37,612 bases of DNA from a bacterium. GTDB lineage: Bacteria > UBP15 > UBA6099 > JAJRTR01. Position numbers and translations under genes: made by a program. The stretch is taken from the NCBI GenBank assembly GCA_024278215.1, contig JAJRTR010000007.1, positions 1 through 37,612 of the forward strand, given 5' to 3'. How positions within the stretch are numbered: position 1 is the stretch's first letter; each line of letters opens with the position of its first letter. The notes under the pieces were generated by a model. It saw only the letters and a program-made list of their open reading frames with translations, was not told where the DNA came from and made no database searches. Below, piece by piece: positions 1,895 through 36,990 of the stretch.

Positions 1895-3141
1895 TCACTT
1901 CGAAAAACCTTTAAAGAATTTCGTTATCGTGTTGATTACATTGTGTATAACAGAATCCGACGGCGGCACTGCCGAGTAACCTGCACGCACCGAATGCTTC
2001 GCCGCCCACGACAGCATTCCGAAGGCTGTCGAACTGAATGTGTTGCTGATCTTATCGCTGAACGGACCATTGTATTTCGGACTTGCCACACGGGCTTTAA
2101 AACCGAGTATCTCTTCGGCCATCTCCGGCAATCCGTCCAGCAGCGCTGTTCCGCAGGTGATTACGACACCTGCGGGAAGCACCGTTGGCGGCAGGTTGTT
2201 CTCCATATCGCCGCGGATAATCCTCAGCAGTTCGGACACTCGCGGCTGGATCACCTGGCTGAGCATTCCTTTGGGCACCTGCGTTCTGTCCTCGCCGCCG
2301 ACATGATCGATTTCTATCGGGTCGCTGTCGTCGACGCCTTCCATGTATGCGCGTCCGTGCTCGATTTTCAGACGTTCCGCCTCCGCCCTGGATGTGCCGA
2401 AGTATACAGCTATGTCATTGTCGATATGTGCGCCGCCTACCGGAATCACCCATGAATTCAGCAGATAACCATCCTTGAAAACGGCGACATCCGTTGTGCC
2501 CGCCCCTATATCCAGCAGAACGATCCCCACCTGTTTTTCGTCGCTGTTCAGCACCGCTTCTCCCGAAGCGAGCCCCCCGAGCAGCAGGCCGTCTATCGGT
2601 ATGTCAAGTTTCAGAATGCACTTCGTAAGGTTATTTATAAAGGATGTCGAGCCGGTGATGATCTGCACCCCGACTTCGAGATTCATCCCGGACATACCCA
2701 GCGGGTCTTTTATTCCGCTCTGACCGTCGAGAGAGAAATCCTGTTCGATAATGTCAACAATCTGTTTTTCCGGCGGCAGCATCAGGTAGCGCGACGCTTC
2801 TATGGCTTTGCGAATGTCATCATGTGTCACTCCCCCGTGCGGGTCGAGGACAGGCGCTGTACCCCTGCTGCTGTTGGCTGCGATGTGCGATCCGCTGATG
2901 CTTATAAGCGCGCCGTCCATAACACGGTCGGCCATCTTTTCAGCTTCGCCGACAGATTCGTAAACCGCGCCGGTGACTGATTCGAGATCGACTACAAGAC
3001 CTTCTTCATGCCTTCGTTCGGCGAACTGCCGAGCCCGATTATGTTGAGATCACCGGAAGAATCGATCTCACCGATAGCCGTCAGCACCTTGGATGTGCCC
3101 ACGTCGATTACAGATAATGTTTTTACCTGTTCCTTTTTCAC
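1895..3141 (-). CDS. ftsA: Cell division protein FtsA, interrupted by a one-base frameshift
   Basis: Actin-fold ATPase that tethers FtsZ to the membrane. The N-terminal part is read from a GTG at 3141, which overlaps the TGA of the preceding sbp gene. It carries the first phosphate motif, VIDVGTSKVLTAIGE, but hits TAG at 2992-2994 after NEGMKKVL. The remaining frame starts immediately with VVDLESVTGAVYESVGEAE and continues through the second phosphate motif DIGAGTTDVAVFKDG to TITKFFKGFSK, an amphipathic C-terminal helix typical of FtsA. One extra G at 3000/3001 (GG to GGG) restores KKGLVVDLE and a continuous 415-residue protein of normal length. FtsA sequences usually have a glycine followed by a valine-rich stretch at this point, so the break is a clean single-base loss. 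Either the assembly has an indel or the gene is truly split. Confidence 0.93.
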
Positions 3142-3452
3142 TTTGCTTCCATTCCCGGATATCGCGAATTTGATATTGTGCTGAATATCGACAACATCAA
3201 CACCAGGACTACAAATGGCGCCAGCGGCGCCCCGCTCCATTGTTCTATCCATAACGCTGCGTAGCAGAAAAATCCCTTCTTCAATAATCCCGGGAGAATC
3301 TTCCTCTCCCGGTCCCTGATGGATGCCGTCAACTCATCTGCCAGTACAAGTGTGATGATAAAACCCGTAAGTCCGTCGAAAGCAAGGCCGCCCGCATGCA
3401 GCGAACTCGATAGCAGCAAACCGATTATCAGACCTGCGACGGTTTCAATCAT
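3138..3452 (-). CDS. sbp: Small basic protein, DUF1290 family
   Basis: A 104-residue membrane protein with three hydrophobic segments (about residues 3-20, 24-38 and 75-93) separated by a basic stretch (RDRERKILPGLLKKG). This matches the DUF1290/Sbp family found between DUF881 genes and ftsA in Bacillus-type division clusters. The ATG overlaps the end of the DUF881 gene by eight bases and has GGAG seven bases upstream. Its TGA overlaps the GTG of ftsA, so translation of the three genes is probably coupled. The molecular role of the family is not established. Position implies a link to divisome or envelope assembly. Confidence 0.85.
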   Translation of the reverse strand: MIETVAGLIIGLLLSSSLHAGGLAFDGLTGFIITLVLADELTASIRDRERKILPGLLKKGFFCYAALWIEQWSGAPLAPFVVLVLMLSIFSTISNSRYPGMEAK

Positions 3453-4380
3453 CAGGTGTCTCCGTATTCATTACTTCCGGCCCGTTTTCCTTCTTTTCCT
3501 TTTTCTCCGCTTGTTTTTCCACCGCTTCTTTCTTCTGTGCCGGTTCTTTGTTTATTTCGTTCGCTTTTTTCTTATCCTTTTCTTTTGCGTCTTTGTCTGT
3601 CTCGACTTTCGCGCCGACTTCTGCGCCGACAACGGTTTCCTCTTTTCTTTCCGGTTTTACTTCAACTTTTACCTTCACAGTTTTTTTCAATATTTTTTTC
3701 TTCTTCGGCGATGCAGTGTTTTTTTCGGTTTCCGGTTTCTTTTTGTTTGCCGTTGCCGCCGCTTTTTTCTTTTTTTCGGTTTCTTCCTTCGCTTTCTTTT
3801 CTTTCTTTACTTCGATGTGCATTTTTGCGCCGCCGTCATATGCAGGAATATCGAGTGTTTCGATTTTATCTACCTGTACCTTCAACTTTTCCTCGGCAAG
3901 CAGGTCTACCACTCCGCCCATCATGAGTATCGACTGCTTGAGCACTTCCGGGTCGCCCGTCGCATCTACGACATAGGGGGGTACCGTATTGCGACCGTTT
4001 ATGCTGATGGCAGGCCCGATGCACCTGATCTCCGTTACCGCAACTATCCTGTTGCCGTTTATCGACATCGCTTCGGCACCGGCGGCGAACAATTCGTTGC
4101 GAATCATTAGCAGGTCTCGCTCGTGAACGATCAGCCTTTCCGTCTTGAGCGGCCTGTTTCGTCTCCGCGTGGCGTCCGTGACGGTGATCCTGATGCCGGG
4201 ACCTGTGACGGGAGTCAGTCCGGCGAGTTTCAATACTTCCTCCTCGACCGGCAGTTCCGGTTTCTCAGGCTCGACCCAGGTCATGCCCCGCCATGAGATT
4301 TCAGGCCATTCTCCGCGCACTATATTGCCCGCGGCGAGACCAAGGACAAGAGCTGTCGCGAAGAGTAATATCCGTCTCAT
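3445..4380 (-). CDS. DUF881 family protein with long Lys/Glu-rich tail
   Basis: The first 25 residues are an uncleaved anchor or signal helix (RRILLFATALVLGLAAGNIV). The DUF881 domain covers about residues 50-175. It includes the characteristic VTGPGIRITVTDA, the helix RNELFAAGAEAMSINGNR, and the segment IRCIGPAISINGRNTVPPYVV followed by ATGDPEVLKQSIL, written here in two parts. DUF881 proteins (YlxW/YlxX in Bacillus) sit beside sbp and divIB in division clusters and have no settled function. From about residue 195 to the end the protein is almost entirely Lys, Glu and Ala, a low-complexity charged extension that ordinary family members lack. The gene is 15 bp after ftsQ with a weak purine-rich ribosome binding site. 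Confidence 0.85.
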   Translation of the reverse strand: MRRILLFATALVLGLAAGNIVRGEWPEISWRGMTWVEPEKPELPVEEEVLKLAGLTPVTGPGIRITVTDATRRRNRPLKTERLIVHERDLLMIRNELFAAGAEAMSINGNRIVAVTEIRCIGPAISINGRNTVPPYVVDATGDPEVLKQSILMMGGVVDLLAEEKLKVQVDKIETLDIPAYDGGAKMHIEVKKEKKAKEETEKKKKAAATANKKKPETEKNTASPKKKKILKKTVKVKVEVKPERKEETVVGAEVGAKVETDKDAKEKDKKKANEINKEPAQKKEAVEKQAEKKEKKENGPEVMNTETPDD

Positions 4381-32611: not shown

Positions 32612-32701
32612 GACAAAGGACAAAGGACAAAGGACAAAGGACAAAGGATCAAAGGATCAAAGGATCAAAGGATCAAAGGATCAAAGGATCAAAGGATCAA
32701 A
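32612..32701. repeat. Tandem repeat of GACAAAG then GATCAAAG units
   Basis: Five perfect copies of GACAAAG (32612-32646) run directly into six perfect copies of GATCAAAG (32647-32694) and a partial seventh. The array touches the stop codon of the large lipoprotein gene (TGA at 32704-32702). The change from seven- to eight-base units by insertion of T shows two rounds of slippage expansion. There are no spacers, so it is not a CRISPR array. Confidence 0.95.
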
Positions 32702-35700
32702 TCAGTCCTGGGCACAACGAAAGCCGTTCTGGAGGTACGAGTAGGTCGGATAGTACCCGTAGCGGTTGGACGCCCGCACGCGCCTCGGGTAGTCGCCCCA
32801 CGAGCCGCCCCGCAAAACACGGTAAGTACCAGACGTCGGACCTGTGGGATCAGTTGTCGGACTTGATGAATAGTAACTTGAACTATACCAGTCGTTCACC
32901 CATTCCCATACGTTCCCCGCCATGTCCATGGCTCCGTAATAGCTCGCCCCGGACGAGTAACTGCCCACTTCCGTTGTGTCTCCGACACAATATGATCCGT
33001 TTTTGAAGTTCGCCAGCGAACACGTCGGGGCCGTGTCGGCCCACGAATAGATATTCTCGCTCGGACTTGGTCCACGCGCCGCTTTCTCCCATTCGGCTTC
33101 GGTGGGCAACCGACCGCCGATCCAGCCGCAGTACGTGCTCGCTTTGTTCCAGTCAACGTATATCACCGGGTAGTTATCGTACGTCGCATTGCCATAATAT
33201 GACGAATGAGTATAAGATGCCGAGCTTGACGGCGCGGAGCACGTGCCCGTGTCCACGCAGGCTTTATACTGCGCGTTCGTCACTTCGTACTTCTGTATCT
33301 TGTACTCGGAAAGCGTCACCGTATGTTTGGGCGATTCTTCGCTGTAGCAATCCGTATCCGCGGCGGCGCAGCCCATGACGAAGTCCCCGGCGGAAATGGT
33401 CAACCATGCGTTGGTGTCCTTTGCGTCGTTCTGGCAGGTGGCCGAGCATCCGTCGCCCCCGGTGGTGTTGCCGTCGTCGCATGTCTCTCCGTTGCTTGTG
33501 TCGGTGGTGGAGTAGCCGCAGAAGGAGACCGTTCCCGATGCCGTCTGGCAAGTGGCATTACATACGTCGCAACTCGTCTGGCCATAGGTGCAGGTTTCTG
33601 TAACGGTGTTGCCGTCGTCGCATGTTTCGCCTGATTCGGTCACGCTATTACCGCAGACGGACGTTGTGGTTCCGTCGCACGTGGCGTTGCAGTAGTTTGG
33701 CTGGCCGTTGTTCGAGCCGTCGTCGCAGGTTTCGCCCTGTTCGGTGGTTCCGTTACCGCATACCGGCCCGCTCACTCCATAGTCCTGGGCACACCGAAAA
33801 CCGATGACGTTGTACGCGAGGGTCGGATTGTGGTTGTTGCGGTTGGACGCCCGCAAGTTCCCCGAGTTGACGTCCCACGAGCCGCCACGAAGAACACGGT
33901 AAGTACCGGACGTCGGGCCCGGAGGATCAGTCGACGGACTCGATGAATAATAACTCACATCATACCAGTCGTTTACCCATTCCCATACGTTCCCCGCCAT
34001 GTCCATGACGCCGTAATAGCTCGCACCGGATGCGTAGCTTCCCACTTCCGTTGTGTCACCGACATTATAGTCTAAGTTCGCAAGCGATGACGTCGGAGCC
34101 GTGTCGCCCCAGGGATATATGTTCTCGCTCGGACTCGGCCCGCGTGCCGCCTTCTCCCATTCCGCTTCAGTCGGCATCCGCCCGCCTATCCAGCCGCAAT
34201 ATGTACTCGCCTGGGTCCAGCTCACGTATATCACCGGATAATTGTCATAAGTCGCATTGCCGTAATATGACGAATGAGTATAAGATGACGTGTCTGACGG
34301 CGCGGTGCACGTTCCCGCGTCCACGCAGGCTTTATACTGCGCGTTCGTTACTTCGTACTTCTGTATCTTATACTCGGAAATCGTCACTGTGTGTTTGGGC
34401 GATTCATTGTTGTTGCAATCCGTATCCGCGGCGGCGCAGCCCATGACGAAGTCCCCGGCGGAAATGGTCAGCCATGCGTTGGTGTCCTTTGCATCGTTCT
34501 GGCAGGTGGCCGAGCATCCGTCGCCCCCGGTGGTGTTGCCGTCGTCGCATGTCTCTCCGCTGCCGGTGTCGGTCGTGGAGTCGCCGCAGAAGGAGACCGT
34601 TCCCGATGCCGTCTGGCAAGTGGCGTTACATACGTCGCAACTCGTCTGGCCATACGTGCAGGTTTCGGTAACGGTGTTGCCGTCGTCGCAGGTTTCGCCA
34701 GACTCGACCAGGCTGTTGCCGCACACGGAACCGGTCATACCGTCGCAGGTAGTGTTGCAATAATTTGGCTGACCGTTGTTCGAGCCGTCGTCGCATGTCT
34801 CTCCGTTGCCTGTGTCGGTGGTGGAGTCGCCGCAGAAGGAGACTGTTCCCGATGCCGTTTGGCAAGTGGCGTTACATACGTCGCAACTCGTCTGGCCATA
34901 CGTGCAGGTTTCTGTAACGGTGTTGCCGTCGTCGCAGGTCTCGCTGTTAACGGTATCTGTGTTTCCGTCACCACAATAGGGGCCGTTTACTACTGTTACC
35001 TGTGCACTGCCGGAAATTGTTCCGGATGTGGCAGCGACAGTACCGACGCCTTCTGTGATTGCGGTGAACAGACCGCTGGAGTCGATTGTACCGACGCCGC
35101 CCGTGACACTCCATGTTATAGCCATGGTGGCAGTTGCTGTAACGGCCATGCCGTAAGTGTTTTTCGGTGTGGCGGTAAATTGTGCTGTCGCGCCCACCGC
35201 GACCGTTGTGGTGGCGGGTGAGACGTCGATGATTGAAACCACAGACCCGGTGTTCTCGTAGTCCAGCACATCCTGTATGTTGATGTTCCGGTAATCGCAG
35301 CCCGAGTTGTGGAACGCATCCACGGCGGCGGTCAGGTTGTCTATCTTATCCTGAGACACCCTGGAGAGAATCACGCCTTCGCGCGCGGCCAGTGCCACGG
35401 CAGCGTCGGCGATTACCGTGGTGCGGTAATCTGCCGTGCCGCGGGTTAGTTCGCCCTCGCGGATTTCCGGGATAATACACTTTATTGTATCGGTGGCACC
35501 ATCGGGCCATGTTGCAATCGCGGTCATGAGGTGGTTTACGCCGATGGGCACTTCGAGCATGGAGACCTTACCGTGACCGCCGGAGGCGTCGATTTGCGTT
35601 GTCGCCGTTACTGACGGGAACACGGAATCATCTTCAGCGTAGTAACCGGTGACAGTGACTATTATGTTGATAGTGCCTGTGGCTGCTGTTCCGTCGTCGC

Positions 35701-35860
35701 GGTCGGCGGTTCGGCTGTTGAAGTGAAGCTCGAACGCAGCATTGCCGTGGCCGGGCGTGGCGGATATTGAGGGTGAAACGCCGCCACCGCCTCCACCGCC
35801 ACAACCACACAGAATAGCGAATACAGCGAGCACTACTGTTATCATCAATGTTTTTTTCAA
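32702..35860 (-). CDS. Cys-rich lipoprotein with two C-type-lectin/FGE-sulfatase domains, putative DGR target
   Basis: A 1052-residue surface lipoprotein. The TTG at 35860 is the start because AAGGAGG lies eight bases upstream. It gives a signal peptide with lipobox LCGC (residue 20) followed by seven glycines. Next come a region of unknown fold (about 30-205), a Big2-type Ig-like domain (about 210-290, VSPATTTVAVGATAQFTATP), and DUF4215-type Cys repeats (recurring ETCDDGNTVTETCTYGQTSC). FGE-sulfatase/C-type-lectin domain 1 follows (AKDTNAWLTISAGDFVMGCA to GFRCAQD), then more Cys repeats and FGE domain 2 to the C-terminus. Both FGE domains keep EYKIQKYEVTNAQYKACVD, RxPTEAEWEKAARG and MDMAGNVWEWVNDWY. 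The closing segments after GGSW are variable-region-like. A ligand-binding surface role is more likely than formylglycine synthesis. Confidence 0.85.
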   Translation of the reverse strand: MKKTLMITVVLAVFAILCGCGGGGGGGVSPSISATPGHGNAAFELHFNSRTADRDDGTAATGTINIIVTVTGYYAEDDSVFPSVTATTQIDASGGHGKVSMLEVPIGVNHLMTAIATWPDGATDTIKCIIPEIREGELTRGTADYRTTVIADAAVALAAREGVILSRVSQDKIDNLTAAVDAFHNSGCDYRNINIQDVLDYENTGSVVSIIDVSPATTTVAVGATAQFTATPKNTYGMAVTATATMAITWSVTGGVGTIDSSGLFTAITEGVGTVAATSGTISGSAQVTVVNGPYCGDGNTDTVNSETCDDGNTVTETCTYGQTSCDVCNATCQTASGTVSFCGDSTTDTGNGETCDDGSNNGQPNYCNTTCDGMTGSVCGNSLVESGETCDDGNTVTETCTYGQTSCDVCNATCQTASGTVSFCGDSTTDTGSGETCDDGNTTGGDGCSATCQNDAKDTNAWLTISAGDFVMGCAAADTDCNNNESPKHTVTISEYKIQKYEVTNAQYKACVDAGTCTAPSDTSSYTHSSYYGNATYDNYPVIYVSWTQASTYCGWIGGRMPTEAEWEKAARGPSPSENIYPWGDTAPTSSLANLDYNVGDTTEVGSYASGASYYGVMDMAGNVWEWVNDWYDVSYYSSSPSTDPPGPTSGTYRVLRGGSWDVNSGNLRASNRNNHNPTLAYNVIGFRCAQDYGVSGPVCGNGTTEQGETCDDGSNNGQPNYCNATCDGTTTSVCGNSVTESGETCDDGNTVTETCTYGQTSCDVCNATCQTASGTVSFCGYSTTDTSNGETCDDGNTTGGDGCSATCQNDAKDTNAWLTISAGDFVMGCAAADTDCYSEESPKHTVTLSEYKIQKYEVTNAQYKACVDTGTCSAPSSSASYTHSSYYGNATYDNYPVIYVDWNKASTYCGWIGGRLPTEAEWEKAARGPSPSENIYSWADTAPTCSLANFKNGSYCVGDTTEVGSYSSGASYYGAMDMAGNVWEWVNDWYSSSYYSSSPTTDPTGPTSGTYRVLRGGSWGDYPRRVRASNRYGYYPTYSYLQNGFRCAQD
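32726..32797 (-). other. Putative DGR variable region 1 (C-terminal lectin domain)
   Basis: Twenty-four codons between GGSW and GFRCAQD-stop, translating as GDYPRRVRASNRYGYYPTYS then YLQN. Against the second copy, all but two of the 23 base differences lie at first or second codon positions, mostly in NNC codons (TAC, GAC, GGC, CTC against AAC, GAC, CAC). That is the footprint of adenine mutagenesis of AAC-rich template codons. Position at the end of a C-type-lectin-fold domain, followed by GFRCA, is standard for DGR targets. Confidence 0.65.
33803..33874 (-). other. Putative DGR variable region 2 (internal lectin domain)
   Basis: The equivalent 24 codons of the internal domain translate as DVNSGNLRASNRNNHNPTLA then YNVI. 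It is rich in AAC/AAT codons (Asn at seven positions), so it looks closer to an unmutated template than region 1. The invariant part RASNR and the NPT segment match the known layout of DGR variable regions (N-rich blocks around LRxxNR). It is internal rather than C-terminal because of the module duplication. Confidence 0.65.
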
Positions 35861-35943
35861 TTGAACAACCTCCTTTTTATAACCATGAATACCGCCTTCA
35901 TAACCTTCACGCAAAAATATATGATTCATACCTTTACATTCAC

Positions 35944-36990
35944 TCACGGTTCAACATATACATCTAATTCAAACTGTCCTGTCTTATAATCTTCCAGCGA
36001 CATCTCGACGATGTCGTTCGTCAACTGCTCGTCCATAACGTCATCATTGATCGTGTCGACAGCGGCGTCCGCCGCGTCAGTGACATCCATCTCCGTAGCA
36101 TCAGCCTCAACGTCAACCGGTTCCTCTATAACCGTAATATCTTTATCAGTGGATTCTCTCATTTCTGTTCCCGTTCCAGTTACAGTTCCGGATTTGGGTT
36201 TTCCCACAGCCTCACCATTTTCACCGGCAGATTTTTTATCATGCTTCATGATGCCCTTGCCATGTTCCGCACCTTTACCCTTGCCCTGCGCTCCTCTGCC
36301 TCTCTTTCTCTCCTCCTTGCCCTTCTCCAGTGTTTTTCCCCCATGAGATTCATTTTTCACCTCTTGGGCCTGTTCATGCGCCTTCTGTTTCATTTCAATC
36401 GGCATAGGCACAGCTCCACCAACTACCCCTGTGGAATCGACTGTTACAATGAAATCCGGCATGACAATAGTCTCTACGCCACCCGCCTCGACGTAAATCT
36501 CGCCAGCGGTAACACCGAAGGTTGAAATCCGGTCCGCTGACACATCCACAAAAAGGTCCGTGCCACGCACGCCCGCAACAGCGGTAGGCGTTCTTATCGT
36601 AAATGAGGATTCCACAGAACGCAGCTTGCCGACATGCGCGTTTATATTGCCTTTTGCAATAACGAACCCTGAATTTTCGTTTCCGTTACTATCACGCTCA
36701 AGCCGGGAAATGTCGAGAGTAGTCAGCGCTTGAATCTTCAACACATGTCCGTTGCCCCATAAAAGAAGGCACGACGATGACGGCCCGGTTCGCACGGTCG
36801 CACCGACAGACAACTTACCGCCCGCGGCAACTTCGGTCCACTCCGCCCCGGCTGACGTGCGTGCCTCAACCACGCCATCTACTCTCTGTACTGTCACCAA
36901 AGTCTGTTCGGCAACCGCCGCATTGATTCCGAAAAGAATCACCATGGCGACCACCGCCGCTATCATATTCAATTTCCATAAGTTTTTCAT
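35944..36990 (-). CDS. Exported FecR-domain protein with charged C-terminal tail
   Basis: A 348-residue secreted or periplasmic protein. It has a Sec signal peptide with likely cleavage after AAVA (about residue 27). A FecR domain (about 35-160) contains LSVGATVRTGPSSSCLLLWG, the middle GFVIAKGNINAHVGKL, and FTIRTPTAVAGVRGTDLFVD. The latter block is the best-conserved part of stand-alone FecR proteins. From about residue 200 the chain is hydrophilic: Lys/Glu/Gly-rich, then an acidic Asp/Thr segment to the end. It is not next to a sigma factor or TonB receptor, so it is probably not an iron-signalling FecR. It lies 83 bp upstream of the start of the Cys-rich lipoprotein gene on the same strand and may be co-transcribed with it. 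Confidence 0.82.
   Translation of the reverse strand: MKNLWKLNMIAAVVAMVILFGINAAVAEQTLVTVQRVDGVVEARTSAGAEWTEVAAGGKLSVGATVRTGPSSSCLLLWGNGHVLKIQALTTLDISRLERDSNGNENSGFVIAKGNINAHVGKLRSVESSFTIRTPTAVAGVRGTDLFVDVSADRISTFGVTAGEIYVEAGGVETIVMPDFIVTVDSTGVVGGAVPMPIEMKQKAHEQAQEVKNESHGGKTLEKGKEERKRGRGAQGKGKGAEHGKGIMKHDKKSAGENGEAVGKPKSGTVTGTGTEMRESTDKDITVIEEPVDVEADATEMDVTDAADAAVDTINDDVMDEQLTNDIVEMSLEDYKTGQFELDVYVEP

What the first reader, a model, noticed from the sequence alone, without database searches (positions are those of the whole stretch)
32702..33910. Two hypervariable lectin-domain segments with the footprint of a diversity-generating retroelement
The protein carries two C-type-lectin/FGE domains, each ending GGSW-24 codons-GFRCAQD. 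I compared the two 24-codon segments by hand (32726-32797 against 33803-33874). They differ at 23 bases: 21 at first or second codon positions, and 15 with an adenine in one copy. The RASNR block and the flanking Cys repeats are nearly identical. Region 2 is AAC-rich, as expected of a template-like sequence. Established DGR biology (adenine-specific mutagenic retrohoming into lectin-fold targets) produces this pattern. Two variable regions inside one Cys-rich lipoprotein, one of them internal, is unusual. No reverse transcriptase or template repeat is in the window, so the diversifier would have to act in trans or has been lost.
Basis: partly seen in the sequence, partly recalled or inferred. 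Interest (0 to 1): 0.85.

Follow-up and report, generated by a model that had tools for sequence, protein, structure and literature searches.

The report
Orphan hypervariable twin-domain surface protein
A predicted bacterial surface lipoprotein carries two copies of a binding loop that look as if they were rewritten by a known gene-scrambling machine (a diversity-generating retroelement), but neither that machine nor its template is in the assembled genome, so it either acts from somewhere unassembled or has been lost.

Summary
One 1081-aa Cys-rich predicted lipoprotein (32702-35947, minus strand) has two FGE-sulfatase (C-type-lectin-fold) domains. Their 24-codon GGSW...GFRC segments differ at 23 bases, 21 at codon positions 1/2 and 2 at position 3 ([13,8,2]). 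The rest of the two domains shows the opposite pattern ([21,11,53]; Fisher P=3e-6). Third positions match far better than codon usage predicts (2 mismatches observed, 15 expected). The pair ranks 2nd of 371 homologous FGE domain pairs for this signature. The segments align, in register, with variable regions of homologous FGE genes in Chloroflexota that sit next to DGR reverse transcriptase, Avd-like gene and template repeat. Differing bases are enriched at those templates' adenines (17 of 23; P about 6e-4). A homologue in another family of the same order shares the third-position pattern.

No DGR reverse transcriptase, template or Avd-like gene was found in this 95%-complete genome; its only RT is group-II-intron-like. 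So this is an orphan DGR-type target, not a DGR. Extreme diversifying selection is the main rival; for this one pair alone it is only weakly excluded. Tandem FGE targets with several VRs in one ORF have precedent: a new member of a known kind.

The parts
32702..35947 (-). 1081-aa Cys-rich predicted lipoprotein with two FGE-sulfatase domains
   Evidence: Open frame; PF03781 x2, 362.5 bits, DUF4215 49.7 bits, weak Big_2; AILCGCGG lipobox-like motif at 35795-35818 read from the sequence
33782..34498 (-). FGE/C-type-lectin-fold domain 1 (internal)
   Evidence: 83% identical to domain 2
33803..33874 (-). Variable segment 1 (DVNSGNLRASNRNNHNPTLAYNVI), internal
33782..33802 (-). GFRCAQD block after segment 1 (position of an IMH), two third-position differences from the other copy
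32705..33430 (-). FGE/C-type-lectin-fold domain 2 (C-terminal)
   Evidence: FGE fold; closest solved relatives are FGEs, and DGR variable protein TvpA (2y3c) also matches
32726..32797 (-). Variable segment 2 (GDYPRRVRASNRYGYYPTYSYLQN), C-terminal
32705..32725 (-). GFRCAQD block after segment 2 (position of an IMH)
33470..33727 (-). DUF4215-type Cys repeats (CDDG motifs) linking the two FGE domains
35944..36990 (-). FecR-domain protein immediately upstream, ORFs overlap by 4 bases, likely same operon
   Evidence: PF04773 38.8 bits

Best explanation
The gene encodes a surface lipoprotein with two tandem, probably non-catalytic FGE/C-type-lectin-fold binding domains, each ending in a DGR-type variable region. 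After the domain was duplicated, each segment was rewritten by adenine-specific mutagenic retrohoming from an AAC/AAT-rich template. That changes first and second codon positions and resets third positions to the template, giving two different ligand-binding surfaces on one protein. Shown: the substitution pattern, its register with known templates, the fold family, and the absence of RT, template and Avd-like gene from the assembly as far as searched. Inferred: that a DGR made the changes, and that it now acts in trans from an unassembled or mobile locus or has been lost recently. I do not file the locus as a DGR, because two defining parts were sought and not found.
For: Segment differences [13,8,2] against [21,11,53] in the rest of the domain, P=3e-6. 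Third-position mismatches 2 against 15.2 expected. Rank 2 of 371 pairs; the top pair is two FGE genes of one Chloroflexota MAG ([14,7,0]); Nitrospira orthologue pairs show no such contrast. Cross-family comparison with G003:C44: third-position difference 3/24 in the segment against 48% in the rest, P=3e-4. Homologous FGE genes in G046 and G049 (51-53% identical by alignment) lie beside a DGR RT (GLPIGNLTSQ motif), an Avd-like gene and a template GGSWNNNNNNVRSANRNRNDPTNTNNNIGFRC in register with these segments. 17 of 23 differing bases lie on adenines of that template, P=6.5e-4.
Against: No DGR RT in the genome: the DGR-RT profile hits only the group-II-like RT at 50 bits, against 515-647 bits for true DGR RTs. 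No template at up to 3 mismatches by three patterns covering the whole segment. No Avd-like gene. None in phage, plasmid or viral collections. The adenine register test restricted to positions 1/2 is weak (P=0.035). The two copies differ at two bases just after the segment, where an IMH should be conserved. No population data.
Confidence: 0.78

Rival explanations
1. Ordinary duplication followed by extreme diversifying selection on a ligand-binding loop, with point mutations only and no retroelement.
For: For this pair alone a selection-only simulation gives P(<=2 third-position differences) of 0.06-0.11 at omega 10 and up to 0.38 at omega 1000 with kappa 4. The loop is also more variable than the rest across the FGE family.
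Against: At omega 3 P is 0.004-0.006. It does not explain low third-position divergence against a homologue from another family whose domain is 48% different at third positions, nor the coincidence with template adenines, nor why pairs with this signature are homologues of known DGR targets.
Confidence: 0.14
2. A dead relic (a sub-case of the best explanation): the DGR that served this gene has been lost and the segments are now fixed.
For: No RT, template or Avd-like gene in the 95%-complete genome or, by the searches run, in order relatives. Two bases differ in the IMH position. A third copy of the domain, at the start of contig C155, is a broken, truncated gene.
Against: Third positions in the segments have drifted little (2/24 against 53/208), so the last rewriting was recent relative to the duplication. 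MAG assemblies lose DGR loci: in G048 the DGR RT is cut off near a contig end.
Confidence: 0.4
3. The segments were exchanged as cassettes by recombination or transfer between FGE paralogues or phages.
For: A phage-like contig of the same bin (C29) carries an array of RGGxW...GFRxVR cassettes.
Against: No donor segment matches in the genome, phage or plasmid collections. Cassette exchange would not by itself spare third positions while changing most codons.
Confidence: 0.06

Closest known systems
Chloroflexota FGE-target DGRs
   Same: Homologous FGE domain with a 24-25 codon variable segment in register; DGR RT, Avd-like gene and template adjacent
   Different: Here RT, Avd and template are absent from the assembly, and two variable segments lie in one protein, one of them internal
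Marichromatium purpuratum 984 DGR target MarpuDRAFT_1558 (PMC3521204)
   Same: Several VRs in one ORF made of tandem FGE-sulfatase paralogues
   Different: Three VRs with a DGR RT nearby; here two VRs linked by DUF4215 Cys repeats and no RT found
Thiohalocapsa PB-PSB1 DGRs with remote targets (PMC10907252)
   Same: Some targets lie at loci without complete machinery and are best explained by trans action
   Different: There the acting RT and template are in the same genome; here none was found
TvpA, Treponema denticola variable protein 1 (PDB 2y3c)
   Same: DGR variable protein with FGE-type C-type-lectin fold; sequence E=3.5e-19 and fold TM 0.73
   Different: Single domain and single VR; in its DGR the components are known (own knowledge)
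Formylglycine-generating enzymes (PF03781; e.g. 2q17, 6muj)
   Same: Fold and family
   Different: The two Cys of the FGE GGSYLCHDSYC motif are missing in both segments, so catalysis is unlikely

Membership tests
Diversity-generating retroelement (complete element) | DGR-clade reverse transcriptase | tested here: not met
   Only RT is group-II-like: TIGR04416 236 bits and QGGPLSP instead of LPIGNLTSQ; DGR-RT profile 50 bits against 515-647 for true DGR RTs
Diversity-generating retroelement (complete element) | Template repeat matching the VR except at adenines | tested here: not met
   BLAST and three patterns with free sites at all variable positions find only the segments themselves and the G003 homologue; limited by a 207-contig assembly
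Diversity-generating retroelement (complete element) | Accessory protein Avd (common, not universal) | tested here: not met
   No PF05635 match in G000; matches adjacent to the DGR RTs of the control genomes
DGR target (variable protein) | C-type-lectin/FGE fold with the VR in the ligand-binding loop | tested here: met
   PF03781 x2; model pLDDT 77.8, FGE fold, TvpA match; segments aligned with VRs and templates of control DGRs
DGR target (variable protein) | Variation confined to codon positions 1/2 at template adenines | tested here: inconclusive
   Codon-position part met: [13,8,2] against [21,11,53], P=3e-6. Adenine part only indirect because the gene's own template is unknown: 17 of 23 differences on adenines of a homologous template, P=6.5e-4 overall, 0.035 within positions 1/2
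DGR target (variable protein) | Conserved IMH after the VR | tested here: inconclusive
   GFRCAQD block conserved but two bases differ between the copies; no clear GC-rich hairpin just downstream of either copy
DGR target (variable protein) | A-linked variants within the population | not testable with these tools
   No reads available
Formylglycine-generating enzyme | Two active-site Cys in GGSYxCHxSYC | tested here: not met
   Neither segment has a Cys there

The most novel reading that the evidence does not exclude
A DGR carried on an unbinned mobile element rewrites, in trans, surface lipoproteins of hosts from different families of this order, so that host genes hold only the target and depend on the element for diversification.
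Probability: 0.2. Interest if true: 0.72.

Novelty: new member of a known kind. Interest (0 to 1): 0.48.

Why it matters
It adds a little-known bacterial order (seven held genomes) to those with DGR-type targets and shows that such targets can be recognised without RT or template, from third-position sparing between duplicated domains. Scans that start from the RT miss such genes. If the machinery acts in trans from a mobile element, host surface proteins would be diversified by a passenger, which is testable.

Tried and rejected
The C160 RT as the diversifier: group-II-intron-like, wrong motif. BLAST hits of the segment on C151: repeat proteins whose frames read WGDYD. RTs of G001 and G004 are group-II-like. 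A template in the MAG of the strongest control pair, L078/L092: only the two segments themselves were found and no RT, so that pair supports the signature but is not a full positive control. A downstream hairpin as in BPP-1: only weak TGATC/GATCA pairing inside a simple tandem repeat after the stop.

Full report
What is there. The gene on the minus strand, 32702-35947, is open for 1081 codons. Pfam finds two FGE-sulfatase domains (PF03781), DUF4215 Cys repeats and a weak Big_2 domain. A lipobox-like AILCGCGG follows a hydrophobic stretch. A FecR-domain gene lies directly upstream, its ORF overlapping by 4 bases.

The pattern is real. The two segments differ at 13, 8 and 2 first, second and third positions; the other 208 aligned codons of the domain pair differ at 21, 11 and 53 (Fisher P=3e-6). 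With the amino acids fixed and codons drawn from the gene's own usage, 15.2 third-position mismatches are expected; 2 are seen.

Controls. Among 371 pairs of homologous FGE domains (60-99% identical outside the segment), this pair ranks second for third-position sparing. First is a pair from one Chloroflexota MAG ([14,7,0] against [32,22,86]). Nitrospira orthologue pairs keep the segment and show no contrast. A homologue in G003, in a different family of the same order, has 3 third-position differences of 24 in the segment against 48% elsewhere (P=3e-4). Pure selection cannot easily give that; for this pair alone, however, very strong selection could.

Link to known DGRs. Homologues at roughly half identity in Chloroflexota MAGs sit beside DGR reverse transcriptases with the LPIGNLTSQ motif, an Avd-like gene and a template repeat. 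Their templates (for example GGSWNNNNNNVRSANRNRNDPTNTNNNIGFRCSR) align without gaps with both segments. Of the 23 differing bases, 17 fall on adenines of that template (P=6.5e-4 over all sites; P=0.035 within positions 1/2).

No machinery. The 4.55-Mb genome (95.2% complete, 207 contigs) has one RT, group-II-like. A DGR-RT profile finds nothing better in it or in the six order relatives. Template patterns covering the middle, left and right of the segment find only the two segments and the G003 homologue beyond chance-level matches. No Avd-like gene. No match in phage or plasmid records; three viral matches are chance. The canonical downstream neighbourhood holds a simple tandem repeat, then unrelated sequence and riboflavin genes. 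The gene's upstream side reaches the contig end after about 1.7 kb.

Fold and function. The C-terminal domain is predicted as an FGE fold (pLDDT 77.8, pTM 0.83; the segment itself is modelled with lower confidence than the core). Best solved matches are FGEs; the DGR variable protein TvpA matches too. The paired Cys of the FGE motif are absent, so a binding rather than catalytic role is likely (inference).

Verdict. A DGR-type target with two variable regions, orphaned in the assembly. Precedents exist for several VRs in one ORF of tandem FGE paralogues (PMC3521204), for multiple VRs in one ORF generally (PMC6642488) and for trans action (PMC10907252). Whether the system is active, remote or dead cannot be told here; reads or a closed genome would decide.

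Noticed in passing
L041 (G000:C29) 2642-4178: Phage-like contig (terminase and portal-like ORFs, DNA methylases) with an array of RGGxW...GFRxVR segments, three repeated at 156-bp spacing, next to an FGE domain whose C-terminal part lies in an overlapping ORF; looks like switchable C-terminal cassettes.
   Followed up: partly
G000:C155:57-689 (L007, L042): Third copy of this FGE domain (84% identical over the aligned part) with an in-frame stop upstream and its end lost before the variable segment: a broken paralogue.
   Followed up: partly
L078 and L092 (Chloroflexi MAG WAS_Bin_29): Two FGE genes whose segments differ at 14, 7 and 0 codon positions, the clearest such footprint seen, in a 1.9-Mb MAG where no RT or template was found.
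   Followed up: partly
32625-32703: Simple tandem repeats (GGACAAA, then GGATCAAA) directly after the stop codon of the gene.
   Followed up: no
G000:C151 about 57388-62234 (L014, L017-L020): Very long open frames of FG-GAP/VCBS-like repeats (GDYDGDGDLD), likely a large surface protein.
   Followed up: no
L313 (G046:C201) 1432-2583: DGR RT frame of a control locus is interrupted by one in-frame TAG near 2073 although target, Avd-like gene and template are present; possibly inactive or a sequencing error.
   Followed up: no
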